Part shown: positions 1 to 25,845 of the stretch, piece after piece | Layout of the letters: every line of letters begins with the position of its first letter | Numbering within the stretch: the first letter of the stretch is position 1 | Virus record (IMG/VR): IMGVR_UViG_3300023503_000053 | Location: 1 to 26,428 of that record | Strand: one strand, 5' to 3' | Length of the DNA: 26,428 nucleotides | Source: a virus | Made by a program: the position numbers and the translations under genes | The notes under the pieces: model-generated | Seen by the model: only the letters and a program-made list of their open reading frames with translations | What the model was told of the DNA's origin: nothing | The model's database searches: none

Positions 1-690
1 GCAGACACGACGACCTTTAACTTAAGTGTAACTGACAGTGACAGTGGGGCAAACTTTGTAGTGCCATCAGCATTGAGTCAGAGCAGTGTAAGTCTGACAC
101 CTGGGCAGAGCACAACAGTAACACTTATGGTAACTGCCCAGACAGGAGTAACAAGTGGTTCAAACAGCACAACAGTAACAGTCTCAGATGGAGGAGTAAA
201 TCATGCTGATGTGGTATCTAATGCTGTAACGACGGTGCTCGGCACAGCAAATGCATCATCTACAGCCTCTCCAGCAGGCACGACTAATGACCTCATAGAG
301 ATTTTTCCTAATGTGAGTGGATATGATTATATTCCTGAATGGGCAGTTACTGTGTTTGAATACGACCTTGACCTGCCAGCAGGGGCACATACAATCACAC
401 TCTACATTCAGAACAATCTTGGCTTTACAATAAATGCAACCAATTCTGATGATGACATATGGCTTGAGTGTGATTACATAGATGCTTACGATGCTATCTA
501 TGGGCATCACTATGAAACAGTTAAATCAACAGAGATCAACATTGCTCAAAGAGCTGATGCAACCGATTGGGACAGCTTGACTGTAACATTCACTCAGGCA
601 ACGAGTGGTAGAGTGAAGCTGAGATTAAAGATTTCAACCTACAGTGCCACAGGCACTATTTATGTTGACCCTGAAGTGGTGGTGAGCTAA
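1..690 (+). CDS. C-terminal part of an Ig-like (NEW3-type) phage structural protein, 5' partial
   Basis: The reading frame is open from base 1, so the gene begins upstream of the window; about 229 residues are visible. Residues 1-65 have the look of a bacterial Ig-like NEW3-type domain: Ser/Thr-rich beta strands around SLTPGQSTTVTLMVTA and a G-S-N-S-T-T-V-T-V repeat. The rest (from about residue 85) is a separate all-beta domain with alternating hydrophobic residues, ending in IYVDPEVVVS. The C-terminal end of the tail fibre at 15422-16813 has similar wording (TPTIYVNPQAV), so both may carry a related C-terminal beta-sandwich. It lies one base ahead of the next gene and upstream of the tail genes, where phages usually keep head decoration or appendage genes. 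A surface-exposed decoration or fibre role is inference; the family is not firmly recognised. Confidence 0.7.
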   Translation, partial: ADTTTFNLSVTDSDSGANFVVPSALSQSSVSLTPGQSTTVTLMVTAQTGVTSGSNSTTVTVSDGGVNHADVVSNAVTTVLGTANASSTASPAGTTNDLIEIFPNVSGYDYIPEWAVTVFEYDLDLPAGAHTITLYIQNNLGFTINATNSDDDIWLECDYIDAYDAIYGHHYETVKSTEINIAQRADATDWDSLTVTFTQATSGRVKLRLKISTYSATGTIYVDPEVVVS

Positions 691-691
691 G

Positions 692-1936
692 ATGGCATTT
701 CTGTGGACATACGGGACAGTTAAAAGAAAAACATCAGGCACAACTCCAACTGTAGTATGGAGTTATGGAAAGCCCACTGTTTATTTTGAGTATGTGAGTG
801 GTGGCGGGGGGACAACTTATACCAAGACCATCAACATAGACGCAATAGTTCAAAAGGTTCTTTCTCAAACAGTTAGCTATGATGCACTGCTACAGAAGAC
901 ACTGCCTGTTGCTCTGTCTGTAGATGGTATTCTACAAAGACTGGCAACTTTAACCACACAAATGGATGCTGTTACACAGGCAACAAAGGAAATTACCACT
1001 ACAATAGATGCTATTGCACAAAAGGCAGGGTTGAGCATTCCAGCACAGGTGGATGCTGTGCTGTTTGAGACTTTTACTGAAGGATTTAGTCTTGACAGTG
1101 TATTACAACAGTTAAAGACAAAAGGCATCTCTGTGGATGGTGTGCTTTCAAAGATAAATACAGAGGTAATCTCTGTAGATGCTCTGCTTGCCAAATATGG
1201 AATTACGACATCAACATCTATTGATGCATTACTACTTAAGCAAGGTGCAGTGGTTGTATCTGTAGATGGGTTGCTACAGAGCACAAGGTCTATTACATCA
1301 CAGATGGATGCTGTGCTTTATAGTGTTACAGGCACTCAGGTAATTTCTACACAGCTTGATGCTTTGCTTAAAAAACTTGGTGTGATAGCACAGGTCAATC
1401 TTGATGCACTGACACAGAAGACAAATACAATGAGCATATCTGTGGATGGAATGCTTAGTCAAGAAGTTTTGAAAGCATTTTCAATTGATGCTGTAATGAC
1501 AAAGGCTATCACACAGCAGGTTTATATTGATGCTCTGACCAAAAAGACACAATTTACTGATATATCGCTTGATGCACAGATTTATAAATTACAGAGTATA
1601 TCAACATCACTTGATGCCGTCATTGGCGGATTGAGTGGACTTGGAGTAGAGCTGGATGCTCTGCTTACACAAGTTGGTAAAGCCCAGCTTGTAAGTCTTG
1701 ACGCACTACTACTACAGGGACACATACTGCCCATAACAATGGACAGTATCTGCTATCAGGTAGGAACTTACAATGTGGATATGGATGCTGTGCTTAGGGG
1801 GCAGATGGCAAAGACAACTCTGCTTGATGCTGTTGTTTATTCTGCCCTTGTTACTGCTACCCCAAAGTATAGTTTTGCTTCAACAGGTGGCAGATACAGA
1901 TTTGATGTGAGCAGTAGATTTCATGCTGTGGTGTAG
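692..1936 (+). CDS. 14-residue-repeat structural protein (24 Asp-Ala-Leu-Leu repeats)
   Basis: Start ATG lies one base after the upstream stop, with a GGTGG-rich stretch just before it. The 414 residues have a short head (1-47, Gly-rich around GGGG), then 24 consecutive repeats (about 48-390), then a C-terminal beta strand tail. Each repeat is about 14 residues of the form [I/L/V]-S-[V/I/L/M]-D-[A/G/S]-[L/V/I]-L-x-K followed by a variable 5-7 residues. Eighteen or so units are exactly 14 long; a few are 15 and one is 17. Asp is invariant and the next residue small, with hydrophobic residues on both sides, which suggests a solenoid or stacked fibrous shaft. Similar xLDAxLQ repeat proteins occur in phage structural regions, but no function is assigned. 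Its place between beta-rich structural genes suggests a virion appendage. Confidence 0.8.
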   Translation: MAFLWTYGTVKRKTSGTTPTVVWSYGKPTVYFEYVSGGGGTTYTKTINIDAIVQKVLSQTVSYDALLQKTLPVALSVDGILQRLATLTTQMDAVTQATKEITTTIDAIAQKAGLSIPAQVDAVLFETFTEGFSLDSVLQQLKTKGISVDGVLSKINTEVISVDALLAKYGITTSTSIDALLLKQGAVVVSVDGLLQSTRSITSQMDAVLYSVTGTQVISTQLDALLKKLGVIAQVNLDALTQKTNTMSISVDGMLSQEVLKAFSIDAVMTKAITQQVYIDALTKKTQFTDISLDAQIYKLQSISTSLDAVIGGLSGLGVELDALLTQVGKAQLVSLDALLLQGHILPITMDSICYQVGTYNVDMDAVLRGQMAKTTLLDAVVYSALVTATPKYSFASTGGRYRFDVSSRFHAVV

Positions 1937-1963
1937 TGCAGAAAGACTGTGTAGGAGGTTGCT

Positions 1964-2443
1964 ATGGCAGCAACAGTACAAATTCATGAAATGACGAGTG
2001 CTTCAACAGGTGTGGACAAGACAAATGGAACTGTTAGGTTCAAAAGTGCTGATGAGACTACTGTGGATACTAATAACAGACTTCAGATTCCAGGCTCTGG
2101 TAACACTTACAGTTACACCAAACAGCTTCAGTTCTACTTTGCTACTGCACCATCTGTGGATATTCAGAACCTGAAAGCTTACTCAAGCGGAACAAATCCC
2201 TGGACTGGTGTTACTGTGCAGTATGATGTGCAGACAGGTTTTTCAACTAATGTAAACACAGATATTGTAGGAACTGACCTTTTCACTGCTACATCTGCCG
2301 CACCAATTGACCTTGGAGTGGGTCCCCACACAGGAACTGGTTATAAAGGCAATATCCTGAGACTTCAGATGGTGGTGAGTTCTACTGCAAGTTCTGGCAC
2401 ATTGACTGCTGAAACTCTGACCCTGAGCTATGATGAGTCCTAA
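1964..2443 (+). CDS. Small beta-rich phage structural protein, unknown
   Basis: 159 residues; ATG preceded by a good ribosome-binding site (GTAGGAGG, about 6 bases away). The sequence is almost entirely Thr/Ser/Gly-rich beta strand (QIHEMTSAS at the start, then FATAPSVDIQNLKAYSSG, and ETLTLSYDES at the end), with no cysteines, no signal peptide and no membrane segment. This composition is typical of phage decoration or appendage proteins. It lies between the repeat protein and the 118-aa gene, in the late structural operon. I recognise no named family; virion association is inferred from composition and context. Confidence 0.75.
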   Translation: MAATVQIHEMTSASTGVDKTNGTVRFKSADETTVDTNNRLQIPGSGNTYSYTKQLQFYFATAPSVDIQNLKAYSSGTNPWTGVTVQYDVQTGFSTNVNTDIVGTDLFTATSAAPIDLGVGPHTGTGYKGNILRLQMVVSSTASSGTLTAETLTLSYDES

Positions 2444-2453
2444 AAAGAAAAAT

Positions 2454-2479
2454 TGAGGGTGGCTTCAATGCTACCCTCA
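2454..2479. terminator. 10-bp hairpin between late genes
   Basis: Stem TGAGGGTGGC (2454-2463), six-base loop TTCAAT, and GCTACCCTCA (2470-2479), with one G-T pair. On the + strand there is no T-tract after it, so it may be an mRNA processing or stability element between late genes. On the - strand the stem is followed by a T-rich tract (complement of 2441-2453), so it could terminate antisense transcription. The next gene's ribosome-binding site starts about 13 bases downstream. Confidence 0.5.
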
Positions 2480-2500
2480 GACTAAATACATGGAGGTGTA

Positions 2501-2857
2501 ATGAGACCAAGCGATACTTATTACTGGGAGATGGAAACAAAAGATAGCAAGGTTGTGAGACAGTATGATGAAAATGGAAAGGAGCAAAGCTGGAAGAAGC
2601 TGGTTAATCCTGATGATGTGGTGAGGGTAAGTTTAATCCCAAGACTTTCTGTGCTACCAAGACATGATGTAGTAATTGATAGAAGTGCTGGAGAAAAATT
2701 TATTAAGAGATTTGGTAGAGGATTTATAAAGCAGGCAGAGGATGGACTGAAACTCAGGGAGTATGTAAACTGTATAATGACAAATAGGTATAGGTTCTGG
2801 GTGTTCAGTGATGGTAGGTGTTTGATAACAAAAAATGATTATGAGGTGTATGTATAA
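2501..2857 (+). CDS. Conserved phage protein upstream of fiber-tail adaptor (unknown function)
   Basis: 118 residues; ATG after a clear GGAGGTG site. Basic and aromatic-rich: YYWEMET at residues 7-13, KEQSWKKL, then a central SLIPRLSVLPRHDVVID segment, FIKRFGRGF, and a C-terminal MTNRYRFWVFSDGRCLIT segment. I have the impression that this pattern recurs in proteins next to small fiber-tail-adaptor genes in other siphophages, but I cannot name a family. Its stop shares one base with the start of the next gene (TAATG), so the two are translationally coupled and probably act together in the virion. Confidence 0.75.
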   Translation: MRPSDTYYWEMETKDSKVVRQYDENGKEQSWKKLVNPDDVVRVSLIPRLSVLPRHDVVIDRSAGEKFIKRFGRGFIKQAEDGLKLREYVNCIMTNRYRFWVFSDGRCLITKNDYEVYV

Positions 2858-3171
2858 TGCAGAGACTATTTGTAATACCAGACCCAAAACCAACTTATGC
2901 AGAATGGTTTGTAGATGTATATCTGTCCAATTGGCTGGCAGGTGAAAACATCAAGACTGTAGGGTTTTCAGCTAAAAAGCTATCAGATGGCACTGATGCT
3001 ACTACAGAAGTTCTGGATGTTTCGAAAAATACAAATACTACTTCAGTGATTAAGCCTTTTATCAGAGGTGGCACTTCTGGCGAATGGTATATAGTTACAC
3101 TTCAAGTTGAAACAGATGCTGGTTCAAAAGAGGAATTCTATATCAAATTTCAAGTAAGAAATGTCTACTAA
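2857..3171 (+). CDS. Phage fiber-tail adaptor-like small protein
   Basis: 104 residues; the start overlaps the upstream stop by one base. Visible pattern: D-x-Y-L-S-N-W-L-A-G-E-N-I at residues 21-33, two beta strands, then I-R-G-G-T-S-G-E-W-Y-I-V-T-L-Q-V and a final F-Y-I-K-F-Q-V strand. This is the layout of the small Ig-like phage proteins annotated as fiber-tail adaptors (W-L-x-G-D-x-I early, G-G-T-x-G-x-x-Y late). Such proteins are thought to link tail or head structures to fibres. The assignment rests on motif spacing remembered from the family, not on a search. It overlaps the next gene by 11 bases. Confidence 0.6.
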   Translation: MQRLFVIPDPKPTYAEWFVDVYLSNWLAGENIKTVGFSAKKLSDGTDATTEVLDVSKNTNTTSVIKPFIRGGTSGEWYIVTLQVETDAGSKEEFYIKFQVRNVY

Positions 3172-3604
3172 GGTTTATATATTTAAAAAAGATGAGGAAG
3201 TGCCTGCCCCTAAAAAAGGACGGGTATATTGTATCAAAAATGGGCAGGTCAAGGTTGTAAGATACCTACAGAATGGTAATGAAGCAGTGCTTGATATAAG
3301 AAAAGAAGGGGAGTATCTGTATGAGCTTGAGACATTTGGAATTAACCAGCCATGTAACTATGTAACTTTAAATGATGTAACTCTAGAGGAAGTCTCTGTA
3401 ACTGGATTTAATCTTATAGAGTTTATCATAAACAAGTATTACTTTTTCCATAAAAGAATGGAGCTACTGTGGCTTAACAATGCCCGGGATAGAATTGAAG
3501 AACTAAAACAGCTTTATGATTTAAGCCTTTTAAGAGGGGCGGAAGTGGCAGGTCTGGCAGGTGTAACAAGGGAAACTGTATCCAGAGCCAGAATAATTGA
3601 GTAA
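3161..3604 (+). CDS. Truncated CRP/FNR-family transcriptional regulator
   Basis: 147 residues. Residues about 15-75 match the cyclic-nucleotide-binding-type beta roll of CRP/FNR proteins: a G-R-V-Y-C-I-x-x-G-x-V-K-V core, a strand ending L-D-I, then a G-E-Y-L-Y-E-L turn. Residues about 83-120 are the long dimerisation helix. Residues 126-147 are the helix-turn-helix, with A-G-V-T-R-E-T-V-S-R as recognition helix. The protein is shorter than the usual 200-230 residues: the N-terminal strands are minimal and it stops just after the recognition helix, with no beta-hairpin wing. It overlaps the adaptor gene by 11 bases inside a structural operon, which is unusual for a regulator. It may control late or host genes. 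The fold is fairly secure; ligand, DNA target and activity are unknown. Confidence 0.7.
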   Translation: MSTKVYIFKKDEEVPAPKKGRVYCIKNGQVKVVRYLQNGNEAVLDIRKEGEYLYELETFGINQPCNYVTLNDVTLEEVSVTGFNLIEFIINKYYFFHKRMELLWLNNARDRIEELKQLYDLSLLRGAEVAGLAGVTRETVSRARIIE

Positions 3605-3673
3605 AATCACAGATTTAACTTTAAATTTGTATTAAAGTCAATGATATAAGAAATACGAAAGGAGGCATTTAGA

Positions 3674-3844
3674 ATGAAAGTTGTATATGTATCTGGTGGC
3701 ACAGATATTATAGAAGTAAATGGCATAACTTTTGAAAAAGGCAAGCCAGTAGATGTAGATGATGATTTCGGCAAAGTGCTACTTAAAAAGACAACTGTTA
3801 AATTTGAAGAAGTAAAGGAAAAAGCAAAGGAAGGAGGTAAATAG
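3674..3844 (+). CDS. 56-aa phage protein ahead of the tail tube gene
   Basis: ATG at 3674 follows AAAGGAGG at a good distance; the frame runs 56 codons to TAG, two bases before the tail tube start. It begins MKVVYVSGGTD and has a V-N-G-I-T-F-E-K-G-K-P-V-x-V core, a K-V-L-L-K-K segment, and ends in a Lys/Glu-rich helix. This resembles the small single-domain phage proteins often encoded just before a tail tube gene (F-x-x-G-x-x-V, then LL, then FE), whose role is not established. Spacing and ribosome-binding site argue that it is real. Confidence 0.7.
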   Translation: MKVVYVSGGTDIIEVNGITFEKGKPVDVDDDFGKVLLKKTTVKFEEVKEKAKEGGK

Positions 3845-3846
3845 AA

Positions 3847-4824
3847 ATGGCACAGGCATTAGGTTCTAAAGGAAGGCTTATATATCAGGAGGAGCCAAGT
3901 TTTAAAACTGACCCCACTACTTTTGATGGTATATTACTGCCATTTGTAGATGAAGACTTGAGGTCTTCAAGAAATCTGATAGACAGTGAGCTTATTCGTG
4001 CTAAAAGGGATGCTACAAAGCCAGTTCTTGGTAATAAGGATGTTACAGGTTCAATCAGGACATATCTTCAGCCATATATTGGCTCACTGATTAAAGGAGT
4101 GCTTGGTTCAGTAACTACAACTGGCACTGGTCCCTATGTTCATACAATCACATCAGCAGATACTCTGCCAAGCTATACCATTGAGAAGGGCTTTACTAAT
4201 ATTAATCAGTATCTCCGCTACAGTGGCTGTAAGATAAACAGCATGACCCTGAATGTTACAAGTGAGGGATTTCAGGAAGTTACCTTTAATGTTATAGGTG
4301 CAAAAGAAAATACAGCTACAAGTTCTTCTGTATTTAGCGGTGGTGGGTCATACACAGACTATGGTAAAAGTTGCTATACAGGATTTGAAATTACCACCAT
4401 TCAGGAAGGTGGCTTCGATATAGCCATAGTAACGGAAATCAGAGACCTTACGATTGAAAACAATCTTGATACAAATGTGTTTGTCATAGGTGGGCAGAGT
4501 GAGAGGAACTCCTTACCAGAAGGAAAAATCAGAGTTACTGGCACATTGACTGCTCTGTTTGAAGACATAACACTTTACAATAAGGCAGTCAACAGCACAG
4601 AGACATCCCTTAAAATTGTCTATCAGTTTGGAACAGGAGATGGAACATCTGGTAATGAATATGTAGAGTTCTATATTCCTGAAATGATTTATCAGCCACA
4701 AGCACCTGTTATATCGGGACCTGCTGGAGTTCTGGTTGATCTTCCATTCCAGGCTTATTATGACAATTCAGTAGAACAGTCCATAATTCAGATAACAATT
4801 AAATCAACACAAGCAACACTATAA
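3847..4824 (+). CDS. Major tail tube protein
   Basis: 325 residues; ATG preceded by GGAGG at 9 bases. It is the structural subunit that stacks into the hollow tail tube. Visible signs: all-beta composition, an early polar loop rich in Arg/Ser/Asp, a G-F-x-x-I-N-Q-Y-L motif near residue 116, E-I-R-D-L-T-I-E-N-N-L-D (about 198-209), R-V-T-G-T-L-T-A-L-F-E-D (about 230-241) and the C-terminal P-V-I-S-G-P-A-G-V ... A-Y-Y-D pattern typical of phage tube proteins of this size. The gene order (tube, chaperone with frameshift, tape measure) supports the call strongly. Late and probably highly expressed, given the strong ribosome-binding site. Confidence 0.9.
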   Translation: MAQALGSKGRLIYQEEPSFKTDPTTFDGILLPFVDEDLRSSRNLIDSELIRAKRDATKPVLGNKDVTGSIRTYLQPYIGSLIKGVLGSVTTTGTGPYVHTITSADTLPSYTIEKGFTNINQYLRYSGCKINSMTLNVTSEGFQEVTFNVIGAKENTATSSSVFSGGGSYTDYGKSCYTGFEITTIQEGGFDIAIVTEIRDLTIENNLDTNVFVIGGQSERNSLPEGKIRVTGTLTALFEDITLYNKAVNSTETSLKIVYQFGTGDGTSGNEYVEFYIPEMIYQPQAPVISGPAGVLVDLPFQAYYDNSVEQSIIQITIKSTQATL

Positions 4825-8600: not shown

Positions 8601-9210
8601 TAAGGAGTGGCAGAATACTGCAAAGCAGATGTATGACCTTGCACAGTCAACTGCACAGGCGATGGAGAGGGCTTTTGGGGATTTCTTCTTTGACTTAATA
8701 ACAGGCAGATTTAAACAGATGAGGGATATAATTGTTGGCTTCCTTGAAAGCATAGCAAGGGCAATATCTAATCTGATGGCACAGAGGATGGTGGCAGCGA
8801 TATTGGGCTCATTCCTTGGAGGTGGAACTACAACAGCCACAACTACTACTGCATCAACTGGTGGGTATCATCTAGCTGGCTATGGTTCACTTAGCTATAA
8901 CCCTGCCTATATGAGAGCAAGTGGTGGTAGTGTATATGCAGGAAAGGCTTATATAGTAGGTGAGCAGGGTATGGAGCTTTTCATACCAGGAACTTCAGGA
9001 ACAATTGTACCAAACCATAAGATAACAACGGACAGACCAAATGTTAATGTGGCAATAAATATAGAGAACAAAACAGGTGTGCCTGTGGATGCTGAACAGG
9101 GCAAGATTGAATTTGATGGTGAAAAGTATATTGTGGGTGTGGTGTTAAAGAGCATACAGCAAAGAGGTGCACTGTATCACGGAGTTAAAGCAGTTCAGCA
9201 GGGGGTGTAA
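5590..9210 (+). CDS. Tail tape measure protein
   Basis: 1206 residues, the second longest gene in the window. It sets tail length and is threaded through the tail tube; at roughly 0.15 nm per residue a tail near 180 nm would be expected (inference). Residues 1-240 are largely helical and basic. A hydrophobic segment at about 246-266 (SVFLVTMLGGLFAAWAGA) and others near 517-570 are the membrane-active segments usual in these proteins. The middle is coiled-coil-like and Lys/Glu/Gln-rich. The C-terminal end has the typical pattern: F-F-F-D-L-I-T-G-R-F, a Gly/Thr-rich linker, then G-G-S-V-Y-A-G-K-A-Y-I-V-G-E-Q-G-M-E-L-F-I-P with S-G-T-I-V-P-N (about 1117-1142). The start overlaps the chaperone extension by 50 bases. 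Confidence 0.93.
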   Translation: MPKEASLKIQVKVAGAKAAQHALATLQQAIFKTFGVTYKHAANNFRILGNMPTAIRKTVKELENAETVLKAITRGKVSPKDFGLSADAFKKMSYAVKQAKPQIMTLHRELEKVKLETQSITNQQKLLQQHPFFRKAYGARAVSAISKVSDIQKEVSDAKKLEAVLKRINYLKDLYRKKGWTRKSQELSVIQKDIERSLGIRQTFFRRVSTGLQRLFPEFSRNTRAMMDFNREAQRASLRLGRIAGRSVFLVTMLGGLFAAWAGAKTVFREAFQAVEKYRKGLAGLTALTLTFIKPKANEGLADQYKRATAYAKHLYKVLEDVAATTLLTGDQANLLAQVFLRNGQFIDVFNKKQVAAFKSIANAIAIVTEGQNKEVQISSEINDLLDGRITQHDRLGQMLLRVDKNLKKHIQTWRQEGTLIEHIGGLLKGFDAVSGQIAATWEAISTKLSTAFSRLSRTAFRPVYEDILNFVNKLTDSLDKNSLGLTQMVWVKYRKLRGILTSLFSVFDTLVSITKKLAINLGSIFLSALLYRGIMRVVKAISIMTEGFKSFAMLTRRMLVFLVLDTLVEIVRWMNRIKDLNRTMKEVAEKAGLSKKQRLGLIEKKTIFGTARIGYTIPSEQEQFINNKQVRKRVQELKEKMAATSEMIYDALQFKGKKQGFISAETGEFIKGANKELLKYYWFTLRGAEGTAALRKELEKLGVSYHIVTLTKILKAKEELQLLAPETAARFIKEFVYIGQDGAIHFKKGFDEKIKKELSLSAVIPALTQDTEKLKKTGEQFGKLIADAMLLGATDIEKIRNQWQTQQKQIIEAFYSLSPEQQKARAPMYGKALMHLKEYYTTAENESIFKSLIKQYNTERDLEELRYGWQGVLGVSMEWLPTVEEAIKRMKELHLTGTQTYLDMIKLLYQLKGVQQEANQKVEDAKGTWEDILSDISSIYNKNTIKGLVSKRQVLQEILPYASSDVKQEIMDELQKTNEAIQEQQAELLKKNYPFKAGLQSMLKEWQNTAKQMYDLAQSTAQAMERAFGDFFFDLITGRFKQMRDIIVGFLESIARAISNLMAQRMVAAILGSFLGGGTTTATTTTASTGGYHLAGYGSLSYNPAYMRASGGSVYAGKAYIVGEQGMELFIPGTSGTIVPNHKITTDRPNVNVAINIENKTGVPVDAEQGKIEFDGEKYIVGVVLKSIQQRGALYHGVKAVQQGV

Positions 9211-9214
9211 AGAA

Positions 9215-10018
9215 ATGAGTGTGAATTTGATTAAAAATGGTGGATTTGAAACAGGAGATTTAACAAATTGGTCAACTTTTATTGATGGTGGAGCTGGTGC
9301 ATCTGCTACTTTTTCTGCAACAACTTCAGATAAATATTCTGGTAATTATTCTTGTTTTATTAATATTGCAAGTGGTGGAACATCTGCAAGTAACATTCAG
9401 TTATATCAGGAATATTTTAATATTGTTAAAGATCTTAAGTATAAAGTCAGATTCTATGCCAAAGCAACAGCAGCAAGAAGTACAGATGTCAGAGTGATTC
9501 AGACAGTGTCTCCTTATAGTGTTTATGGTCTTGACGCTTCAGTTAATCTTACCACTTCTTGGCAGCTTTATGAATTATCATTTACAGCCAATACAACTGC
9601 CAATGACACCAGATTTCAGTTTAGATTGGGTGGAAATGTAGAAGATGTTTATATTGATGATGTTTCTTTGACTATAGACTTTTCTCTTTCAAAAAATCCT
9701 ACAGTAGAAGGTTATAGTCAAACAGTTCTCTTTGACCCTGTACTGAGGAGTAAAACAGATGGTGGTTATCGACACACAAGAGCAAGATTTACAAGAGTAC
9801 CAAAGAAATGGCGACTTCACTATACTGCAATGTCTGATACTGATAAAGCCACTATGGAAGCATTTGAACAGGCTTGTGGATATGGGGCACAGAGTATGAC
9901 ATGGACTAATCCAAAAGATGGACAAGAATATACAGTGAGATTTTCAAAACCAGTTGAGTATAGACTTTTCAGAACTTCACAGCTCTGGGAATTTGAAGTA
10001 GAGCTTGAGGAGGTCTGA
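9215..10018 (+). CDS. gpM-like minor tail protein with N-terminal carbohydrate-binding-module-like domain
   Basis: The ATG at 9215 is chosen because GGGGGTG lies just upstream; 267 residues. Residues 4-155 look like a CBM4/9-type jelly-roll: N-L-I-K-N-G-G-F-E-T-G-D-L-T-N-W at the start, a S-G-N-Y-S strand, Y-K-V-R-F-Y-A-K-A in the middle, and V-E-D-V-Y-I-D-D-V-S-L at the end, all diagnostic for this fold. Residues about 165-267 match the gpM-type minor tail protein: G-G-Y-R-H-T-R-A-R-F-T-R-V-P-K-K-W, then a long strand pair ending W-E-F-E-V-E-L-E-E-V. gpM-type proteins sit at the tail tip next to gpL. The sugar-binding domain is an extra module; it may help the tip hold cell-wall or surface glycan. 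The domain's DNA looks more AT-rich than its neighbours. Confidence 0.8.
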   Translation: MSVNLIKNGGFETGDLTNWSTFIDGGAGASATFSATTSDKYSGNYSCFINIASGGTSASNIQLYQEYFNIVKDLKYKVRFYAKATAARSTDVRVIQTVSPYSVYGLDASVNLTTSWQLYELSFTANTTANDTRFQFRLGGNVEDVYIDDVSLTIDFSLSKNPTVEGYSQTVLFDPVLRSKTDGGYRHTRARFTRVPKKWRLHYTAMSDTDKATMEAFEQACGYGAQSMTWTNPKDGQEYTVRFSKPVEYRLFRTSQLWEFEVELEEV

Positions 10019-17166: not shown

Positions 17167-17529
17167 ATGCCAATATCTTGGAAAAAGAAAATCAATTCTT
17201 GCTGGTGGCTAAAGAATGATGATGACCCAGTGCCGCCTGCATGGTTTGTGAAAAATAAACCACACTGGTATAGGATGTTCATGTGGTATCTGAGAAATCC
17301 TTTGCACAATTTTACCTTTTATGTCATTGGCATAGCGGACAAACAATTTGAAAGCTATGGTAAGCGACCAGATACTGTTTTTGTGCATGGCTGGGACTGG
17401 GCAGTGAGAAAATATAAGTGGTTAAGACTGCCATTTATAAGCTATCAGGGGCATGGCTGGCAGTTTTATATTGGATGGAGGGATAGAGGAAACTTTGGGG
17501 TGAAATTGAGAAGGATTTCACCCCATTAA
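17167..17529 (+). CDS. Conserved aromatic phage protein, unknown
   Basis: 120 residues, starting one base after the previous stop; TGAGG lies about 7 bases upstream. Very rich in Trp, Tyr, Phe and basic residues: W-W-L-K-N-D-D-D-P-V-P-P-A-W near the N-terminus, N-P-L-H-N-F-T-F-Y-V-I-G-I-A-D-K (about 43-58), F-I-S-Y-Q-G-H-G and Y-I-G-W-R-D-R-G-N-F-G-V-K-L-R at the end. I believe this arrangement occurs in other phages and prophages in the same position after tail genes, without known function. No signal peptide or clear membrane helix. The terminator hairpin overlaps its last codons. Confidence 0.72.
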   Translation: MPISWKKKINSCWWLKNDDDPVPPAWFVKNKPHWYRMFMWYLRNPLHNFTFYVIGIADKQFESYGKRPDTVFVHGWDWAVRKYKWLRLPFISYQGHGWQFYIGWRDRGNFGVKLRRISPH

Positions 17530-18829: not shown

Positions 18830-19006
18830 TTAAACCTCCATTTTCCAGAAATATTCACACTTGCCATTTTTGAATGGCACAATAACAAACTGGCTCAAAA
18901 ACTCATTTGTTCTACTACTAATATACCACTCAAAAGTAATATATCTCTTACATTTTTTCTTCAATAGGCAATCTGTGCCTTTACAAACAGTGATACTCTT
19001 AATCAT
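18830..19006 (-). CDS. Small Cys-rich phage protein, unknown
   Basis: The start is put at ATG 19006 (GGGAG eight bases upstream); 58 residues. It overlaps the dUTPase stop by eight bases. Cysteines in C-K-G-T-D-C-L-L-K-K-K-C-K-R-Y (about 8-22) and a last C near residue 51 could form a small metal site. The C-x4-C-x5-C-x-R-Y pattern resembles small conserved phage early proteins of unknown function. It is translationally coupled to dUTPase. Confidence 0.65.
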   Translation of the reverse strand: MIKSITVCKGTDCLLKKKCKRYITFEWYISSRTNEFLSQFVIVPFKNGKCEYFWKMEV

Positions 19007-19448
19007 TTCCTGAACTCCCAAATCCTCTTGCTCCTCTTTCTGTAGGATAATGTTTTTCAAAGTCTATATAAATATCTTTATTAACTACAATCTCTACTTC
19101 ATAGTCTTTACTAAAAACCATCTGGCAAATTCTGTCAGTTGTAAACAATTTAACATCAAAATCTCCGTGATTAATCAAAATTACTTCAACCTCACCCCGA
19201 TAGTCTGGGTCAATCAGCCCTGGTGAGTTTAAAACCGTAACTCCAAATTTACGAGCAAGACCACTACGAGGTCTAATATCTGCATGACAGTCTGAAGGCA
19301 TTGCCAGTTTAAACCCTAAAGGAATAGAAAGCCATTTATGTGCTGGAATTATAATATTCTTTCGGGTCTTACAATCCCAGCCTGATGAATCATATTTTTT
19401 CTCTGGCACAAGATGCCAGTTAAAAGAGCACAAGATAATTTTATTCAT
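18999..19448 (-). CDS. dut: dUTPase (deoxyuridine 5'-triphosphate nucleotidohydrolase)
   Basis: 149 residues from ATG 19448, which has its own strong site (GGGAGG, five bases away). dUTPase converts dUTP to dUMP and pyrophosphate, keeping uracil out of phage DNA and feeding thymidylate synthesis. All five trimeric dUTPase motifs are visible: I D-S-S-G-W-D-C (residue about 18), II R-P-R-S-G-L-A (about 61-67), III G-L-I-D-P-D-Y-R-G-E-V with the catalytic Asp (about 76-86), IV D-R-I-C-Q-M-V (about 105), and V R-G-A-R-G-F-G-S-S-G at the C-terminus. Length matches the family. The frame also runs upstream to 19523 and encodes a copy of the methyltransferase N-terminus (M-N-W-K-D-K-F-P-K-E-N-R). A 174-residue form with this tail is possible but seems to be a recombination by-product. 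Confidence 0.92.
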   Translation of the reverse strand: MNKIILCSFNWHLVPEKKYDSSGWDCKTRKNIIIPAHKWLSIPLGFKLAMPSDCHADIRPRSGLARKFGVTVLNSPGLIDPDYRGEVEVILINHGDFDVKLFTTDRICQMVFSKDYEVEIVVNKDIYIDFEKHYPTERGARGFGSSGND

Positions 19449-19523
19449 AAAAACCTCCCTATTCTCTTTTGGAAATTTATCCTTCCAATTCATATTCTCT
19501 TTATTTAGTTTTGGTTTTGTCAT
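19449..19523 (-). pseudogene. Orphan N-terminal methyltransferase cassette fused ahead of dUTPase
   Basis: Twenty-five codons in the dUTPase frame. The first 22 equal the N-terminus of the methyltransferase at 19520-21022 (M-T-K-P-K-L-N-K-E-N-M-N-W-K-D). It has an excellent ribosome-binding site (AAGGAGG, TAAA spacer, ATG) and overlaps the methyltransferase stop by four bases. It is likely a leftover of a lost methyltransferase. It could still be translated as a tail on dUTPase or as a coupling leader. Confidence 0.7.
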
Positions 19524-19528
19524 TTTAC
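19465..19528. repeat. 64-bp direct repeat, copy 1 (methyltransferase N-end)
   Basis: Identical to 20964-21027 over 64 bases. It encodes the methyltransferase N-terminal residues plus the start codon; homology resumes for a few bases (TCCTTT) beyond one mismatch. The other copy belongs to the intact gene at 19520-21022. It probably arose by duplication or recombination in a methyltransferase array. Confidence 0.9.
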
Positions 19529-21022
19529 CTCCTTTAATTCTTTAATTGTGTCTTTAATTCTTTGTTTAGCTATTTCACAATACTTTTCATGGAGTTCTAT
19601 TAAAATCCACTGCCTACCAACATTTTTACATGCAATCGCTGTCGTACCGCTCCCTCCGAATGGATCTAACACAATTCCCCCTGCTGGTGTTTTAGTCAGT
19701 GTGCATAGATATTCCATAAGTTTGAGAGATTTTACAGTTGGATGCGTGTTGCCTACACCACGCTCTTTCTTGGAAGCCTTAGCACAGTAGAAGAAGCGGG
19801 CATTATTTTCCCCTTTTCCTGTTAAGTCAACCTTTATCTGCTTAAAATAACGGGAAGCTCCGCCTTTGTCGCCAAAGCCCACCCTTCCCTTCTCTCTATT
19901 TTTTGAAGTATCAGTACCAAAAATACTAACTGCATTGCCATTGCCACCACCAGAACTTAATCCCAATTCCCCACTCTGCTCATCTAACATATAGCAAGGG
20001 CATTCTGGGTTGGTATGGATTCGATAACCACCTTTATATGTTCTTCCAGCGGGCTTTCCTTCTGATTTTCTCCATATACCACCTTTTACTTCTTCTGGTT
20101 CTTTAATTTCTTCTGTCCCTTCTATCACCTCATCACAAATACATTCAAGGATTATGTTGGCTGGGAAGCGACCTTGTGGATGTTGTTCTCCTTTATTTTT
20201 ACCATCCAAATTACTTCCATAACCAACTTTACCAGACCCTATTGATAGTTTTTCATTTGTCCCTATCCTCCCCCCGTCAATATTCAACCCTGCTACTCCC
20301 CACTTCAAAGCATTTTGAGCATAGCCTCCTTCTGGACTTTTAATGGCTAAAATAATCGGTTCAAATGCTGGCTTTAATGCTGTTCCGTATCCTTCCCAAT
20401 CATTTTTTACTATATTGTTGCCAACTTCTATTTGGTTTTTTTGGAATATCTTGTCTGCAATATTCACATTTTTTAATTTCTTGTGCCGTAAATACATATC
20501 CTCCTTATATTCATTATACATATTTTCTAATTGTTTTCTTATATTCTTTGCTATATTTAAAGATTTGGGAAATCCGCTACCATAAATCCAGAGGATAGTA
20601 TCTTTAATCTCAAACCCAGCCAATCTTAAACTCATACTCATCAAATCTTGAGTCCTTGTCCCAGCAAACACTAAAGCAGTTCCACCAGGTTTCAACACCC
20701 TATACACTTCCCTCCACAAAGCAGGTGGTGGAACGAAAGCATCCCAATCTTTCCCCATAAATCCTGATCCACCTGGTATATAATCATCCTCACCCGACAG
20801 CCACTTCATCATCGTTTCCCGTATTTTCTTTTCTGATATGTTCGATAGCCCGTATGGTGGGTCTGTTATCACGGTATCCACACTATTCTCTTCCATCTTT
20901 TCCAACACTTCTATGGAGTTTCCGTTGTATAGTATTCCCCCATCTGCCTCATAATATCTGTTTTCTTTTGGAAATTTATCCTTCCAATTCATATTCTCTT
21001 TATTTAGTTTTGGTTTTGTCAT
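19520..21022 (-). CDS. Beta-class DNA amino-methyltransferase (N6-A or N4-C), 500 aa
   Basis: Start ATG overlaps the previous stop (ATGA) with AAAGGA upstream; M11 is an alternative start that matches the paralogues. Motif order is IV first (T-D-P-P-Y-G-L at about 54-60), then a long target recognition region of about 350 residues with Gly-rich and N-P-E-C-P-C segments, then motif X-like H-P-T-V-K-S-L-K-L-M-E-Y and motif I L-D-P-F-G-G-S-G-T-T near residue 455. That order and D-P-P-Y define the beta class. Target base and sequence cannot be read from it. It is much larger than the two paralogues at 23083 and 23876 because of the central region. The last residues (C-E-I-A-K-Q-R-I-K) share their DNA with the orphan end at 21909-22016. 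No nuclease lies nearby, so it is an orphan methyltransferase, probably for anti-restriction. Confidence 0.9.
   Translation of the reverse strand: MTKPKLNKENMNWKDKFPKENRYYEADGGILYNGNSIEVLEKMEENSVDTVITDPPYGLSNISEKKIRETMMKWLSGEDDYIPGGSGFMGKDWDAFVPPPALWREVYRVLKPGGTALVFAGTRTQDLMSMSLRLAGFEIKDTILWIYGSGFPKSLNIAKNIRKQLENMYNEYKEDMYLRHKKLKNVNIADKIFQKNQIEVGNNIVKNDWEGYGTALKPAFEPIILAIKSPEGGYAQNALKWGVAGLNIDGGRIGTNEKLSIGSGKVGYGSNLDGKNKGEQHPQGRFPANIILECICDEVIEGTEEIKEPEEVKGGIWRKSEGKPAGRTYKGGYRIHTNPECPCYMLDEQSGELGLSSGGGNGNAVSIFGTDTSKNREKGRVGFGDKGGASRYFKQIKVDLTGKGENNARFFYCAKASKKERGVGNTHPTVKSLKLMEYLCTLTKTPAGGIVLDPFGGSGTTAIACKNVGRQWILIELHEKYCEIAKQRIKDTIKELKEVK
19537..19588. repeat. 52-bp direct repeat, copy 1 (methyltransferase C-end)
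   Basis: Identical to 21911-21962 for 52 bases; beyond one mismatch a further CCTCCTTT matches. It encodes E-K-Y-C-E-I-A-K-Q-R-I-K-D-T-I-K-E on the - strand. Confidence 0.9.
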
Positions 21023-21027
21023 TTTAC
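20964..21027. repeat. 64-bp direct repeat, copy 2 (methyltransferase N-end)
   Basis: Partner of 19465-19528, at the intact start of the 500-aa methyltransferase. Confidence 0.9.
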
Positions 21028-21897
21028 ATCCTTTCCATGCCTTGCCACAAACTCTAACGCCTCTCTAATTGTTTTCTCACTTACCCTTGCTCCGTTAGAC
21101 AACTCAATTAGCCCCTCTTCCCCTTCACCATCGGGCAAGCCAGTCTCTTTCAAAATCCCATAGGCAACTTCACCCCCGATCAGCTTACCACAGGTGATAG
21201 TTTTTTCTTTCTCATCAATTTCACGCCAGTTACAAACCCCAGCGAAAATTCTCAATCCTGCTTTAAGAGTGGTCCCACAAGTAATGGAGAAATGAGAGAT
21301 AATCCCTCCACCAGTCTCAATCCACTCACCAGCTTTAATCCCTCCACCAGCTTTAATCCACTCGTCAGCTTTAATCCCTCCACCTGCCTCAATCCATCCA
21401 CCAGTTTTAATCCACTCACCAGCTTCAATCCCTCCGCCAGTTTCAATCCAATCACCAACCTCAATCCTTCCAATAGCTTTAATCCACTCGCCAGCTTCAA
21501 TCCCTCCACCAGTCTCAATCCACTCACCAGCTTTAATCCACTCGTCAGCTTTAATCCCTCCACCCGCCTCAATCCACTCACCAGCCTCAATCCCCCCACC
21601 AGCTTTAATCCATCCACCAGTTTTAATCCACTCACCAGCTTCAATCCCTCCACCAACCTCAATCCAATCACCAGTTTTAATCCACTCGCCAGCTTTAATC
21701 CACTCACCAGCTTTAATCCCTCCATCAGCTTTAATCCACTCGCCAGCTTTAATTAACCCACTGGCTTCAATACTACCCTCTACTACTAACCCCTTCTCCA
21801 AATCAATCTCCAAATCCCCATTGGTTATTAAATTCCCCTCCCAGTAATACCTCCATCCCATATCTTTTAGCCCTTTTGTTTTGGATGTAATTTTCAT
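21019..21897 (-). CDS. 25-hexad repeat protein, beta-solenoid-like, unknown
   Basis: Start put at ATG 21897 because AAAGGAGG lies directly upstream; ATG 21912 is also in frame. 292 residues. After a 45-residue head (G-W-R-Y-Y-W-E-G-N) comes a run of 25 hexapeptides from about residue 51 to 200, alternating types G-E-W-I-K-A and G-G-G-I-E-A. Ile is at position 4 of nearly every unit, and Trp or Gly at position 3. This periodicity suits a left-handed hexapeptide-type or bactofilin-like beta-solenoid. The C-terminal 90 residues are different: two cysteines, then a charged helix. DNA repeats are 18 bp. The gene sits between a methyltransferase C-end and an N-end, like inserted cargo, and overlaps the methyltransferase start by four bases. 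Function unknown. Confidence 0.8.
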   Translation of the reverse strand: MKITSKTKGLKDMGWRYYWEGNLITNGDLEIDLEKGLVVEGSIEASGLIKAGEWIKADGGIKAGEWIKAGEWIKTGDWIEVGGGIEAGEWIKTGGWIKAGGGIEAGEWIEAGGGIKADEWIKAGEWIETGGGIEAGEWIKAIGRIEVGDWIETGGGIEAGEWIKTGGWIEAGGGIKADEWIKAGGGIKAGEWIETGGGIISHFSITCGTTLKAGLRIFAGVCNWREIDEKEKTITCGKLIGGEVAYGILKETGLPDGEGEEGLIELSNGARVSEKTIREALEFVARHGKDVK

Positions 21898-21908
21898 TTT
21901 TCCTCCTT

Positions 21909-22016
21909 TCATTCTTTAATTGTGTCTTTAATTCTTTGTTTAGCTATTTCACAATACTTTTCTTCTAACTCAATACCTATCCATCTACGATTTAATTTTT
22001 CACAGGCCACAAGTGT
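21909..22016 (-). pseudogene. Orphan C-terminal remnant of a beta-class methyltransferase
   Basis: Directly after the C5-methyltransferase stop, 35 codons remain of a methyltransferase end: T-L-V-A-C-E-K-L-N-R-R-W-I-G-I-E-L, then E-K-Y-C-E-I-A-K-Q-R-I-K, and a TGA. This is the segment that follows motif I in the neighbouring methyltransferases, but motif I and everything before it are gone. No start codon or separate ribosome-binding site is obvious. The downstream solenoid gene starts a few bases after its stop. Confidence 0.85.
21911..21962. repeat. 52-bp direct repeat, copy 2 (methyltransferase C-end)
   Basis: Partner of 19537-19588, inside the orphan C-terminal remnant. Confidence 0.9.
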
Positions 22017-23086
22017 TATTCTACTTTTATAAAAGAAAATATCCAAGCTATTACATCAACAGTCCAAGTGTTTCCTACCATTTTATATCTTTGAGTATCT
22101 GATATCTGTTTTACTTTACCATCTTCAAATAAACCATATTGAGTATAATTATCAGGTAAAGTTTGTAATCTCTCACATTCAAGAGGTGTAAGTCTTCTTA
22201 CCCTAATAATTCTATCTACCAAAATTTTTGGCTGTCTATACCCTCCTTGCATTGTAGTTAAAGTGGGAGATTTACCAAAAATTGAATAAACCCTTTTAAT
22301 TATATCATATCCTTTTAAATCTAAATACCCAATACAAAAACACAAATTTGTAGCTCCAGAATTTGATACTCCTTGGCCTGCTGCAGTTAAACATTTAGCT
22401 TTTTGTTCTGGAGTTCTTAAATTAGCTAATGCTTTTTTTAAAGATGTTCTCCCTTTAATATTTAATAACCTATTCTCTATATAATACTTCTTATCAACCT
22501 CATCTTCTAAAATATCTTTCAATAATATTCCATTATCTTCAGGCAACCCTTCAACAGGTATATTTGTCCAATATAATCTTCTTCTGTTTTGTGCTGATAC
22601 TAAAGCTGAATTTATTTCAATAGGCTCTACTTCCAAAGCATTTGTAACTACATCTCTCCACTTTTTAGCCACTCTGACATTCTCAAGTAAAAACCACTTA
22701 GGTTTAATCTCTTTCAACAACCTTGCAAATTCCCAAAAGAGATAAGATTGTCCTTCAAATTCAAATCCTTGTTCTTTTAACTCTAAATATTGTTCAAGTG
22801 AAGTAACTTCTATTTTTTCTTTTGTTACCATACCTTGTCTCTTACCTGCAAAACTGAAGTTCTGACAAGGACTCCCTCCCATTATTAAATCAACTTCTTT
22901 AAAATCTTCTCCTTTCAAATATCTAATATCACCAACAAATATTGTATCTGGATAATTATATCTTGCTACTGCAATAGCATATTTATCAACTTCACTTGCA
23001 TAATACTTTTCAAATTTAATTTCTACTCTATCTAATGCTAATCTACCACAAGAGATACCATCAAAAAGACTTAATACATTTCTCAT
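22016..23086 (-). CDS. C5-cytosine DNA methyltransferase (Dcm/DNMT3-like phage type)
   Basis: Start put at ATG 23086 (AGGAGG eight bases upstream); GTG 23095 is three codons earlier. About 356 residues. Motif I L-S-L-F-D-G-I-S-C-G-R-L-A-L (about 4-17), motif IV G-G-S-P-C-Q-N-F-S-F-A-G with the catalytic Cys (about 73), motif VI L-L-E-N-V-R, motif VIII Q-N-R-R-R-L-Y-W, motif IX L-T-P-L-E-C-E-R-L-Q-T-L-P, motif X M-V-G-N-T-W. All C5-methyltransferase motifs are present, so it should be active. It transfers a methyl group from S-adenosylmethionine to C5 of cytosine. The F-D-G-I-S-C-G start is the phage DNMT3-like subtype. Overlap with the upstream methyltransferase stop is four bases (ATGA). The gene is visibly more AT-rich than the dUTPase side. 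Confidence 0.93.
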   Translation of the reverse strand: MRNVLSLFDGISCGRLALDRVEIKFEKYYASEVDKYAIAVARYNYPDTIFVGDIRYLKGEDFKEVDLIMGGSPCQNFSFAGKRQGMVTKEKIEVTSLEQYLELKEQGFEFEGQSYLFWEFARLLKEIKPKWFLLENVRVAKKWRDVVTNALEVEPIEINSALVSAQNRRRLYWTNIPVEGLPEDNGILLKDILEDEVDKKYYIENRLLNIKGRTSLKKALANLRTPEQKAKCLTAAGQGVSNSGATNLCFCIGYLDLKGYDIIKRVYSIFGKSPTLTTMQGGYRQPKILVDRIIRVRRLTPLECERLQTLPDNYTQYGLFEDGKVKQISDTQRYKMVGNTWTVDVIAWIFSFIKVE

Positions 23087-23859
23087 ATCAGCCACCTCCT
23101 CTCTTCAAATAGTTTTCTTTGTCTAACAATTTCTTCTATTCTTTTCTTAGCTATTTCACAATATTTCTCTTCTATTTCAATACCGATCCATCTTCTATTA
23201 AGTTTTTCACTTGCAATAGCTACAGCACCTACACCAATAAAAGGATCTAATACTATTTCGTTTTCTCGAGTAGAGTTGTCTATTAAAATTTCCATTAACT
23301 CTACAGGTTTTTCTGTATCATGGGTATTTTTACCATTTACTTTAGTCTTTTTATTAGGAATTGATAAAATATCAGATGTCCCACAATTATTTATTCTTTT
23401 AGCTTTACCTTTTCTACCAAATAAGATATACTCAAACTGTGACATATAAAACATACTAGTAATCTTGTTACCCTTATCCCATATAAGACTTCTTATGAAA
23501 TTTACATTTTTTATATTATAAATAACACTTAAATATTCATACAAATTTTTATGGTTTGTCATAACATAAAAATGAGTGTGTGTTTTTAATTTACTTATAA
23601 CAAAAGGTAACCATTCTTTAACATCAACATCGTTATGTTTAAAAACTTTACCTTTCATATTTATATCTTTTCTAAACATTCCTCCTGCTCCTCCAGCACT
23701 ACCCCTACTTGTTGTTCTGTAAGGAGGGTCTGTGACTACTAAATCTATACTTTCACTCGGAAATTGCTTTAAAATCTCTAAACAATCTTGATTATATAAA
23801 ATTCCATTCTCAGTTTCAAAATAATGATTTTCTTTTGGGAATTTATCTTTCCAGCTCAT
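23083..23859 (-). CDS. Beta-class DNA amino-methyltransferase, 258 aa
   Basis: Start follows AAGGAGGTGATAAA; 258 residues. N-end M-S-W-K-D-K-F-P-K-E-N-H-Y-F-E, motif IV V-T-D-P-P-Y-R-T-T (about 42-50), a Gly-rich loop after it, target region to about 195, then motif I I-V-L-D-P-F-I-G-V-G-A-V-A-I-A (about 205-219). Motif I differs from the usual F-G-G-S-G-T-T but keeps F-x-G-x-G. The last 35 residues (E-K-L-N-R-R-W-I-G-I-E) match the other methyltransferases here. Small for the class, but motifs are in order. Specificity unknown. DNA is AT-rich compared with the 500-aa paralogue. Confidence 0.9.
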   Translation of the reverse strand: MSWKDKFPKENHYFETENGILYNQDCLEILKQFPSESIDLVVTDPPYRTTSRGSAGGAGGMFRKDINMKGKVFKHNDVDVKEWLPFVISKLKTHTHFYVMTNHKNLYEYLSVIYNIKNVNFIRSLIWDKGNKITSMFYMSQFEYILFGRKGKAKRINNCGTSDILSIPNKKTKVNGKNTHDTEKPVELMEILIDNSTRENEIVLDPFIGVGAVAIASEKLNRRWIGIEIEEKYCEIAKKRIEEIVRQRKLFEERRWLI

Positions 23860-23875
23860 TTTATCACCTCCTTAT

Positions 23876-24664
23876 TTAAAATAAACCTCTTTGTTTTATA
23901 ATTTCTTCTATTCTTTTCTTTGCTATTTCACAATATCCCTCATTGATTTCTATTCCTATCCATCTTCTATTGAGTTTTTCACAAGCTACAAGAGTTGTTC
24001 CACTACCACAAGTAAAATCAAGCACTAAATCACCTTCGTTGGTATATGTTTTGATAAGATACTCTAACAAAGCTAATGGTTTTTGAGTAGGATGTTTATC
24101 TACATTATGCTCATTATTTATTTTTAATATAGTTGTAGGATAATTAGTCTTAGTTTGTATATGAACCTCTTTATCTGGAACTTTACCATACACACGACTC
24201 TTTTTTCGGCCTTCTGTATTCTTTTTTATGAAATTACAATCTACCAATCCTTGTGGATTATAAGTAGGTTGTTTTTTATAAAAAACAGATATTATTTCAT
24301 GTTTAACCATAGGTCTTTTCTTTGCTTGTAAATGTCCAGTTTTTCTTGATTTTTCCCAAATCCAATCATACTTAAACTCTTTAAAATTGCTAACTCTCAA
24401 TAAACTACTAAAAGGCTCGCTTCCAAATAAAACAATAGGCGTCCTATCTTTCCTAATTCTCTTTAACTCTCTCCACATATCATCAAATGGAATAACAATA
24501 TCCCATTTGCAAGCAGTTGTTCCATAAGGAGGGTCAGTAATAATAGCGTCAAATATCTGCTGTGGAAACTTACTCATTGTTTCAATGGCTTCAGCATTAT
24601 ATAATATTCCATTCTCAGTTTCAAAATATCTATTTTCTTTAGGAAATTGGTCTTTCCAATTCAT
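23876..24664 (-). CDS. Beta-class DNA amino-methyltransferase, 262 aa (phage type, DPPYGTTACKWD)
   Basis: 262 residues; ATG in ATGA overlap with the upstream gene, preceded by GAGGTG. Motif IV reads T-D-P-P-Y-G-T-T-A-C-K-W-D (about 42-54), the form often seen in phage N6-adenine methyltransferases; then F-D-D-M-W-R-E-L-K-R-I and L-F-G-S-E-P-F, the motif X-like H-P-T-Q-K-P-L-A-L-L-E-Y, and motif I V-L-D-F-T-C-G-S-G-T-T (about 213-223). Adenine as the target is likely by resemblance; the site is unknown. It shares its N-end and C-end with the paralogues in this block. Confidence 0.92.
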   Translation of the reverse strand: MNWKDQFPKENRYFETENGILYNAEAIETMSKFPQQIFDAIITDPPYGTTACKWDIVIPFDDMWRELKRIRKDRTPIVLFGSEPFSSLLRVSNFKEFKYDWIWEKSRKTGHLQAKKRPMVKHEIISVFYKKQPTYNPQGLVDCNFIKKNTEGRKKSRVYGKVPDKEVHIQTKTNYPTTILKINNEHNVDKHPTQKPLALLEYLIKTYTNEGDLVLDFTCGSGTTLVACEKLNRRWIGIEINEGYCEIAKKRIEEIIKQRGLF

Positions 24665-25723: not shown

Positions 25724-25845
25724 CTTCCATCTCCAACAGTTCAGGATTTTCATAAATGTTGCCAATAACTTCCAAATCTTGCCATTTAATCCAATTATTC
25801 TTGCCATTTATGCCAATAACTTCCAAATCTTGCCATTTAATCCAA
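25724..25845 (-). pseudogene. Displaced original C-terminus of the YopX-family gene
   Basis: Between the present YopX stop and the next gene, the last repeat copy encodes W-Q-D-L-E-V-I-G-N-I-Y-E-N-P-E-L-L-E-M and a stop overlapping ATG 25723. This is the expected end of a YopX-family protein (I-G-N-I-Y-E-N-P-E-L-L). It is now out of frame with the rest of the gene because of the tandem duplication. Confidence 0.8.

What the first reader, a model, noticed from the sequence alone, without database searches (positions are those of the whole stretch)
3161..3604. CRP/FNR-like regulator embedded in the tail operon, lacking the wing
A 147-residue protein with a cyclic-nucleotide-binding-type beta roll, a dimer helix and a helix-turn-helix (A-G-V-T-R-E-T-V-S-R) overlaps a structural gene and precedes the tail tube gene. 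It ends right after the recognition helix, so the usual winged part is missing. A late-expressed regulator of this type could sense a host signal or interfere with host CRP/FNR sites or heterodimerise with a host regulator.
Basis: partly seen in the sequence, partly recalled or inferred. Interest (0 to 1): 0.58.

Follow-up and report, generated by a model that had tools for sequence, protein, structure and literature searches.

The report
Miniature wingless CRP-like phage protein
A phage carries, among its tail genes, a cut-down version of a common bacterial gene switch (the CRP/FNR type) that keeps the DNA-reading helix but has lost the wing and most of the residues that would sense cyclic AMP; it is unusual in phages, but what it does is not known.

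Summary
The ORF 3161-3604 (+, 147 aa) is real and is homologous to CRP/FNR regulators. Pfam cNMP_binding matches above its curated cut-off (E 1.7e-7). A CRP/FNR model scores 45.4 bits against at most 8.7 in 2000 shuffles. The helix-turn-helix scores 18.2 bits against at most 7.7 in 5000 shuffles, and no wing is found in the protein or in any downstream frame. An alignment-guided AlphaFold2 model gives a beta-roll, one long helix and two HTH helices (mean pLDDT 69.9); Foldseek's best PDB matches are CRP/FNR proteins. Relative to CRP, four segments are missing: N-terminal helix, about 12 residues near helix B/C, D-E hairpin with AR1, and wing. The three base-contacting residues of CRP are kept (R137, E138, R142); five of six checked pocket positions are changed. 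No close relative was found; 0 of 80 phage records with a related tail-tip gene carry the domain. Best reading: a captured, miniaturised, probably cAMP-independent DNA-binding protein acting as repressor or competitor. Function is untested; sensing of a host signal is not supported.

The parts
3161..3604 (+). 147-aa wingless CRP/FNR-like protein gene (whole ORF with stop)
3170..3400 (+). beta-roll (cyclic-nucleotide-binding type), about residues 4-80
   Evidence: Pfam PF00027 at residues 21-80, E 1.7e-7; genome search of the same domain at 3221-3400, 32.4 bits, over cut-off; model strands between residues 4 and 79
3413..3520 (+). single long helix, residues 85-120, aligned with CRP helices B/C/D
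   Evidence: model, pLDDT about 57-60 here, so low confidence; alignments
3536..3586 (+). two-helix HTH, residues 126-142, with R137, E138, R142 at the CRP base-contact positions
   Evidence: PF13545 at 3518-3589, 16.6 bits, below its cut-off
3609..3630 (.). 22-bp near-perfect palindrome just after the gene; possible operator, lead only
   Evidence: 145 of 3000 simulations of the local composition give one as good; no second copy in the window
2857..3171 (+). upstream neighbour, Gp77-like fiber-tail adaptor, overlaps the gene by 11 nt
   Evidence: PF23148 E 1.7e-9
3674..3844 (+). 56-aa ORF between the gene and the tail tube, no family match
3847..4824 (+). tail tube gene
   Evidence: PF18906 E 7.7e-47

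Best explanation
The gene is a captured CRP/FNR-type regulator that has been shortened to about two thirds. It keeps the whole beta-roll, a dimerisation-type helix and a three-helix HTH core (end of the long helix plus two short helices). It has lost the N-terminal helix, about 12 residues near helix B/C, the D-E hairpin (where AR1 lies in E. coli CRP) and the wing. Most likely it works as a cAMP-independent dimer that binds short palindromes with CRP-like half-sites. With the wing and the AR1 segment gone it should not activate as E. coli CRP does, so it should act as a repressor or competitor: at a phage operator (for instance the palindrome at 3609-3630) or at host CRP/FNR sites during virion production. 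Shown: homology of both domains, the absent segments, retained DNA-contact residues, changed pocket residues, gene position. Inferred: dimer, DNA binding, target, timing, direction of regulation.
For: Pfam PF00027 above cut-off. CRP/FNR HMM 45.4 bits, best of 2000 shuffles 8.7. Separate beta-roll and HTH models beyond 5000 shuffles, wing model not. Of 30 plasmid matches listed (31 in all, E 0.2-8, individually weak), 29 are annotated Crp/Fnr regulators and 1 as a cyclic-nucleotide-binding protein; 20 of the 31 cover at least 80% of the query. Model with beta-roll, long helix and HTH; all 50 Foldseek PDB rows shown are CRP/FNR-family structures by title; VIA-align best Z 10.9 over residues 1-109, rmsd 2.3, 102 aligned. 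CRP R180/E181/R185 align with R137/E138/R142, named as the specific base contacts of CRP (PMC12531629, passages) that read TGTGA (PMC11253593, passages). The TS motif is replaced by F96-H97; in the cAMP-independent DdrI the Ser128 position is a Tyr that helps fill the pocket. The open frame, in-frame losses at element boundaries and GC3 of 0.32 (tube 0.30, J 0.30) suit a settled gene.
Against: No enrichment of CRP or FNR consensus sites. The candidate operator is marginal. No relative with the same architecture was found, so selection cannot be measured. Pfam HTH_Crp_2 is below its cut-off (16 of 27 bits). The HTH part of the model has pLDDT about 47-58, and the alignment behind it was chosen to keep the CRP register, so the model is partly circular; VIA-align rows mostly cover residues 1-126 only.
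Confidence: 0.45

Rival explanations
1. Dominant-negative partner: the protein pairs through its long helix with a host CRP/FNR subunit and makes a heterodimer that binds DNA poorly.
For: Beta-roll and long helix are kept; wing and AR1 segment are missing.
Against: The three base-contact residues are all kept, which a pure poison would not need. The dimer helix appears shortened by about 12 residues, which could hinder pairing with a full-length partner. Sequence identity to the compared CRPs is only 17-31%; the host is unknown.
Confidence: 0.15
2. A captured host gene that is decaying and has no function.
For: Four segments are missing; no relative in phages of the same tail type (0 of 80 records); shortest open frame among 34 matches in 793 genomes is 223 aa.
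Against: The frame is intact, losses lie between structural elements and base-contact residues are kept, and GC3 fits the neighbours. Strong divergence argues against a recent capture.
Confidence: 0.25
3. The CRP fold was reused as a virion part (neck, tail completion or adaptor protein).
For: It sits just upstream of the tail tube region, where four related contigs have a 144-164-aa protein that I read as a tail terminator, and no connector or terminator relative was found in this window.
Against: No similarity to those neck or terminator proteins; DNA-contact residues kept. The missing neck genes may lie upstream of the contig start.
Confidence: 0.08
4. Unrelated beta-rich phage protein with a chance HTH motif.
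For: The GVTRETVSR motif also occurs in other proteins.
Against: Scores far beyond shuffles for both domains in the right order and Pfam above cut-off.
Confidence: 0.02

Closest known systems
CRP (CAP), Escherichia coli
   Same: beta-roll, long helix, HTH; base contacts R180, E181, R185 all kept as R137, E138, R142
   Different: 147 against 210 aa; no N-terminal helix, no AR1 segment, no wing; G71, R82, S83, T127, S128 changed
DdrI, Deinococcus radiodurans (PMC11253593, passages read)
   Same: CRP family with a pocket unsuited to cAMP; bulky residue at the Ser128 position
   Different: DdrI has a winged HTH (same passages); full length
Crp/Fnr regulator WP_225510370.1, Rhizobium leguminosarum plasmid (L012)
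   Same: short (184 aa); poor wing score (5.3 bits against 13.7-23.4 in the 12 other references) and short D-E linker, so wing loss has a bacterial precedent
   Different: keeps a longer N-terminus and the B/C region; recognition helix differs (SPEALYR)
A0A6J5RKH2, uncultured Caudovirales phage, named as a Crp cAMP-binding protein (BFVD)
   Same: phage-encoded CRP-type model, best viral structure match, E 5.5e-7
   Different: 216 aa; not examined further
CRP-like protein at the end of viral contig IMGVR_UViG_3300014039_000311 (L109)
   Same: CRP-type protein on a viral contig
   Different: longer (191 aa from the first listed start), wing model 15.2 bits (it was one of the 13 sequences in that model); next to replication-type genes by my reading, not tail genes

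Membership tests
CRP/FNR transcription regulators | N-terminal cyclic-nucleotide-binding beta-roll | tested here: met
   PF00027 31.5 bits, cut-off 27.5; 36.8 bits against at most 9.8 in shuffles
CRP/FNR transcription regulators | long dimerisation helix | tested here: inconclusive
   helix 85-120 predicted at pLDDT about 57-60; about 12 residues short near helix B/C; dimer not tested
CRP/FNR transcription regulators | C-terminal HTH of CRP type | tested here: met
   16.2-18.2 bits against at most 7.7 in 5000 shuffles; but PF13545 only 16 bits, cut-off 27
CRP/FNR transcription regulators | wing after the recognition helix | tested here: not met
   wing model 0.3 bits in the protein, -0.4 to 0.4 in the three downstream frames
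CRP/FNR transcription regulators | base-contact residues R180, E181, R185 | tested here: met
   R137, E138, R142; role from PMC12531629
CRP (cAMP-responsive) | cAMP pocket G71, E72, R82, S83, T127, S128 | tested here: not met
   Y54, E55, Q63, P64, F96, H97: one of six kept; register of R82/S83 uncertain by one; the place of G71 in the pocket is recalled, the other five are named
CRP (cAMP-responsive) | activating region 1, residues 154-164 | tested here: not met
   segment falls in a gap; conserved only in the E. coli CRP class anyway (PMC12531629)
FNR (iron-sulphur) | cluster-binding cysteines | tested here: not met
   two cysteines in all; FNR's need for four is recalled
CRP/FNR transcription regulators | sequence-specific DNA binding and control of transcription | not testable with these tools
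   needs purified protein or genetics

The most novel reading that the evidence does not exclude
A phage has built the smallest known CRP-type regulator: a ligand-independent, wingless, hairpinless dimer that still reads CRP half-sites and is made with the tail proteins to shut or hijack host CRP/FNR promoters (or its own tail-tube operon) during virion assembly. 'Smallest known' rests only on what was compared here.
Probability: 0.15. Interest if true: 0.65.

Novelty: new variant of a known kind. Interest (0 to 1): 0.42.

Why it matters
CRP/FNR regulators are central in bacteria but look rare in phages: no PHROG family matched this one below E 0.06, 13 of 50,697 phage records matched two CRP queries and several of those look like bacterial DNA, and one viral contig gave a CRP by conserved patterns. 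If this one works, it shows how little of a CRP is needed to read DNA, whether the wing and hairpin are dispensable, and how a phage may interfere with a host's global regulator late in infection.

Tried and rejected
AlphaFold2 without an alignment gave pLDDT 36 and was not used. Searches for relatives with the protein itself found none: phages, viral contigs (50 pattern matches, 0 confirmed), genomes (594 pattern matches, 0 confirmed). Tail tube, J and tape measure as single queries found no close relative in viral contigs. The methyltransferase brought 80 viral loci, none with the CRP-like or other tail proteins except one weak tube match, E 0.004. A conserved HTH pattern in genomes gave 9 loci, 7 of them CRPs by reading, used as references. 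VIA-align rows mostly end by residue 126, so they say little about the HTH.

In the wider survey, the CRP model also gave weak hits beyond the references: L007 (E 0.0041) and L148/L149 (E 0.0075); not followed. Searches of two groups (drawn as the phyla of a Bacillota and a Nitrospirae genome) gave matches at E <= 1e-4 in 13 of 398 and 20 of 395 genomes, 34 genes, all with open frames of 223 aa or more; other phyla were not searched and the host is unknown.

CRP/FNR consensus sites: no enrichment. Promoter-like sites near the gene are no more than in shuffles (6 against 8.4). tRNAs and Rfam families: none. Wing remnants downstream: none. Tail terminator or connector relatives among window ORFs: none. 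Paper searches showed nothing on a wingless or phage-encoded CRP in their listings; only passages of PMC12531629 and PMC11253593 were read. Most subscription papers are not in that library, and 'CRP/FNR' with a slash could not be searched as such.

Full report
Observation. The ORF 3161-3604 (+) encodes 147 aa. An in-frame stop at 3155-3157 fixes the N-terminal limit. The ORF overlaps by 11 nt the end of a Gp77-like adaptor gene and is followed, after a 69-nt gap and a 56-aa ORF, by the tail tube gene. The window is a virus record of 26,428 bases with a lambda-like tail-tip set: NlpC/P60, Phage_tail_L/DUF1833 and GpJ domains.

Identity. Pfam cNMP_binding matches residues 21-80 at E 1.7e-7, above its cut-off; HTH_Crp_2 (E 0.012) and LacI HTH (E 0.0023) match the C-terminus below theirs. 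No PHROG family matches better than E 0.064. A CRP/FNR model from 13 references scores 45.4 bits; the best of 2000 shuffles scores 8.7. Split models show that both halves carry signal: beta-roll 36.8 bits against at most 9.8, HTH 16.2 (18.2 for residues 100-147) against at most 7.7 in 5000 shuffles; the wing model gives 0.3 bits, and -0.4 to 0.4 in the three downstream frames. The 13 references score 5.3 to 23.4 with that wing model; they were used to build it.

Individual matches are weak. tblastn in 72,556 plasmid records gives 31 records at E 0.2 to 8; of the 30 listed, 29 are annotated Crp/Fnr regulators and one as a cyclic-nucleotide-binding protein. PDB sequence matches are CRP/FNR proteins at E 0.02 to 0.4.

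Anatomy. Alignments with E. coli CRP, FNR and other members put gaps in four places: the N-terminal helix, about 12 residues near helix B/C (the exact place varies between alignments), the D-E hairpin including the segment that is AR1 in E. coli CRP, and everything after the recognition helix. CRP R180, E181, R185 align with R137, E138, R142. Pocket positions G71, R82, S83, T127, S128 align with Y54, Q63, P64, F96, H97; E72 is kept as E55. The role of these residues is taken from passages of PMC12531629 and PMC11253593, except G71, which is recalled. In the latter paper, the cAMP-independent DdrI carries a Tyr at the Ser128 position that helps fill the pocket.

Structure. The model without an alignment failed (pLDDT 36). 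With four CRP rows (A5) the mean pLDDT is 69.9 and pTM 0.54: beta-roll residues 1-80 at 65-91, a helix 85-120 and HTH helices 126-132 and 137-142 at about 47-60. A5 was selected from 300 trials for CRP register, so the model tests compatibility and is not independent evidence. Foldseek's 50 listed PDB matches are CRP/FNR-family structures. VIA-align gives Z 10.9 at best, over residues 1-109, rmsd 2.3, 102 aligned. The TM-scores are modest (0.42-0.59 by query length) and the rmsd is high in full-length Foldseek alignments, as expected for a low-confidence C-terminal arrangement. Among viral models only one match is a CRP (A0A6J5RKH2, 216 aa); the second below E 0.001 is a Megaviridae STAS-domain protein.

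Relatives. No relative of the protein was found in phages, viral contigs or genomes at the sensitivity of those tools. A profile of the tail-tip protein J found 105 viral relatives, of which the best 80 were kept. None of these 80 records has a cNMP_binding match at E <= 0.01 (40, 40); the same search finds it in the window (32.4 bits). Many of the 80 are fragments, so absence is not proof. In four of these loci (L117, L120, L124, L138) the gene before the tube is a 144-164-aa protein that I read as a tail terminator; nothing similar is found in the window. In 793 genomes from two groups, 34 matched genes at E <= 1e-4 have open frames of at least 223 aa. Wing loss has a precedent in a 184-aa Rhizobium plasmid Crp/Fnr protein.

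Rarity in phages. Two CRP queries match 10 and 11 of 50,697 phage records, 13 distinct. Several look like bacterial DNA by name and length (for example records of 378-582 kb); this was not tested. A conserved-pattern scan of 2.9 million viral contigs gave one CRP (L109); that scan is not exhaustive.

Mechanism. A beta-roll plus an HTH that keeps CRP's base contacts suggests DNA reading of TGTGA-like half-sites. The changed pocket suggests independence from cAMP. The missing AR1 segment and wing argue against E. coli-style activation, though AR1 is not conserved in most of the family anyway. So repression or competition is most likely. Consensus sites are not enriched. A 22-bp near-perfect palindrome at 3609-3630 starts 5 nt after the stop codon; 145 of 3000 local simulations give one as good, so it is a lead only. 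Dimer formation, DNA binding, target and timing are all inferred.

Verdict. By homology it belongs with CRP/FNR, but two defining features (wing, cAMP pocket) were tested and not met, so it is filed as a wingless variant and not as a regular member. It is one orphan protein with unproven function, hence moderate interest.

Noticed in passing
18999-19523, 19520-21022, 23083-23859, 23876-24664 (all -): A dUTPase and three methyltransferase-like proteins start with the same leader (NWKDKFPKEN-type). For the dUTPase and the first methyltransferase the DNA is 96% alike over 77 nt (19459-19535 and 20958-21034), so a start segment seems to be copied between unrelated genes.
   Followed up: partly
21891-21983: A copy (86%) of a 93-nt stretch at 19517-19609, which covers the 3' end of the first methyltransferase, lies at the start of the repeat protein gene and before the next methyltransferase; it looks like a left-over end of a methyltransferase gene.
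   Followed up: no
21019-21912 (-): 297-aa protein with an 18-nt repeat unit (25 register copies listed) and a weak FapA beta-solenoid match (E 0.0081).
   Followed up: no
692-1936 (+): 414-aa protein made of repeats of the type 'xxSxDAxLxK', no family match better than E 0.04.
   Followed up: no
9167-10018 (+): Tail protein with a carbohydrate-binding domain (CBM_4_9, E 9.7e-15) at its N-terminus; the related proteins in other phages are shorter (one search lists frames of 348-378 nt).
   Followed up: no
1-3846: No tail terminator or head-tail connector relative was found upstream of the tube, unlike in four related contigs.
   Followed up: partly
L012 299-850: A 184-aa Rhizobium plasmid Crp/Fnr regulator also seems to lack the wing and a full D-E hairpin; an adenylate/guanylate cyclase gene lies next but one.
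   Followed up: partly
17497-17524: Perfect 10-bp-arm inverted repeat near where the two gene blocks converge; could be a terminator.
   Followed up: no
25760-25921: Tandem repeat of 51/73-nt units at the start of ORF 25349-25807 and the end of ORF 25846-26229.
   Followed up: no
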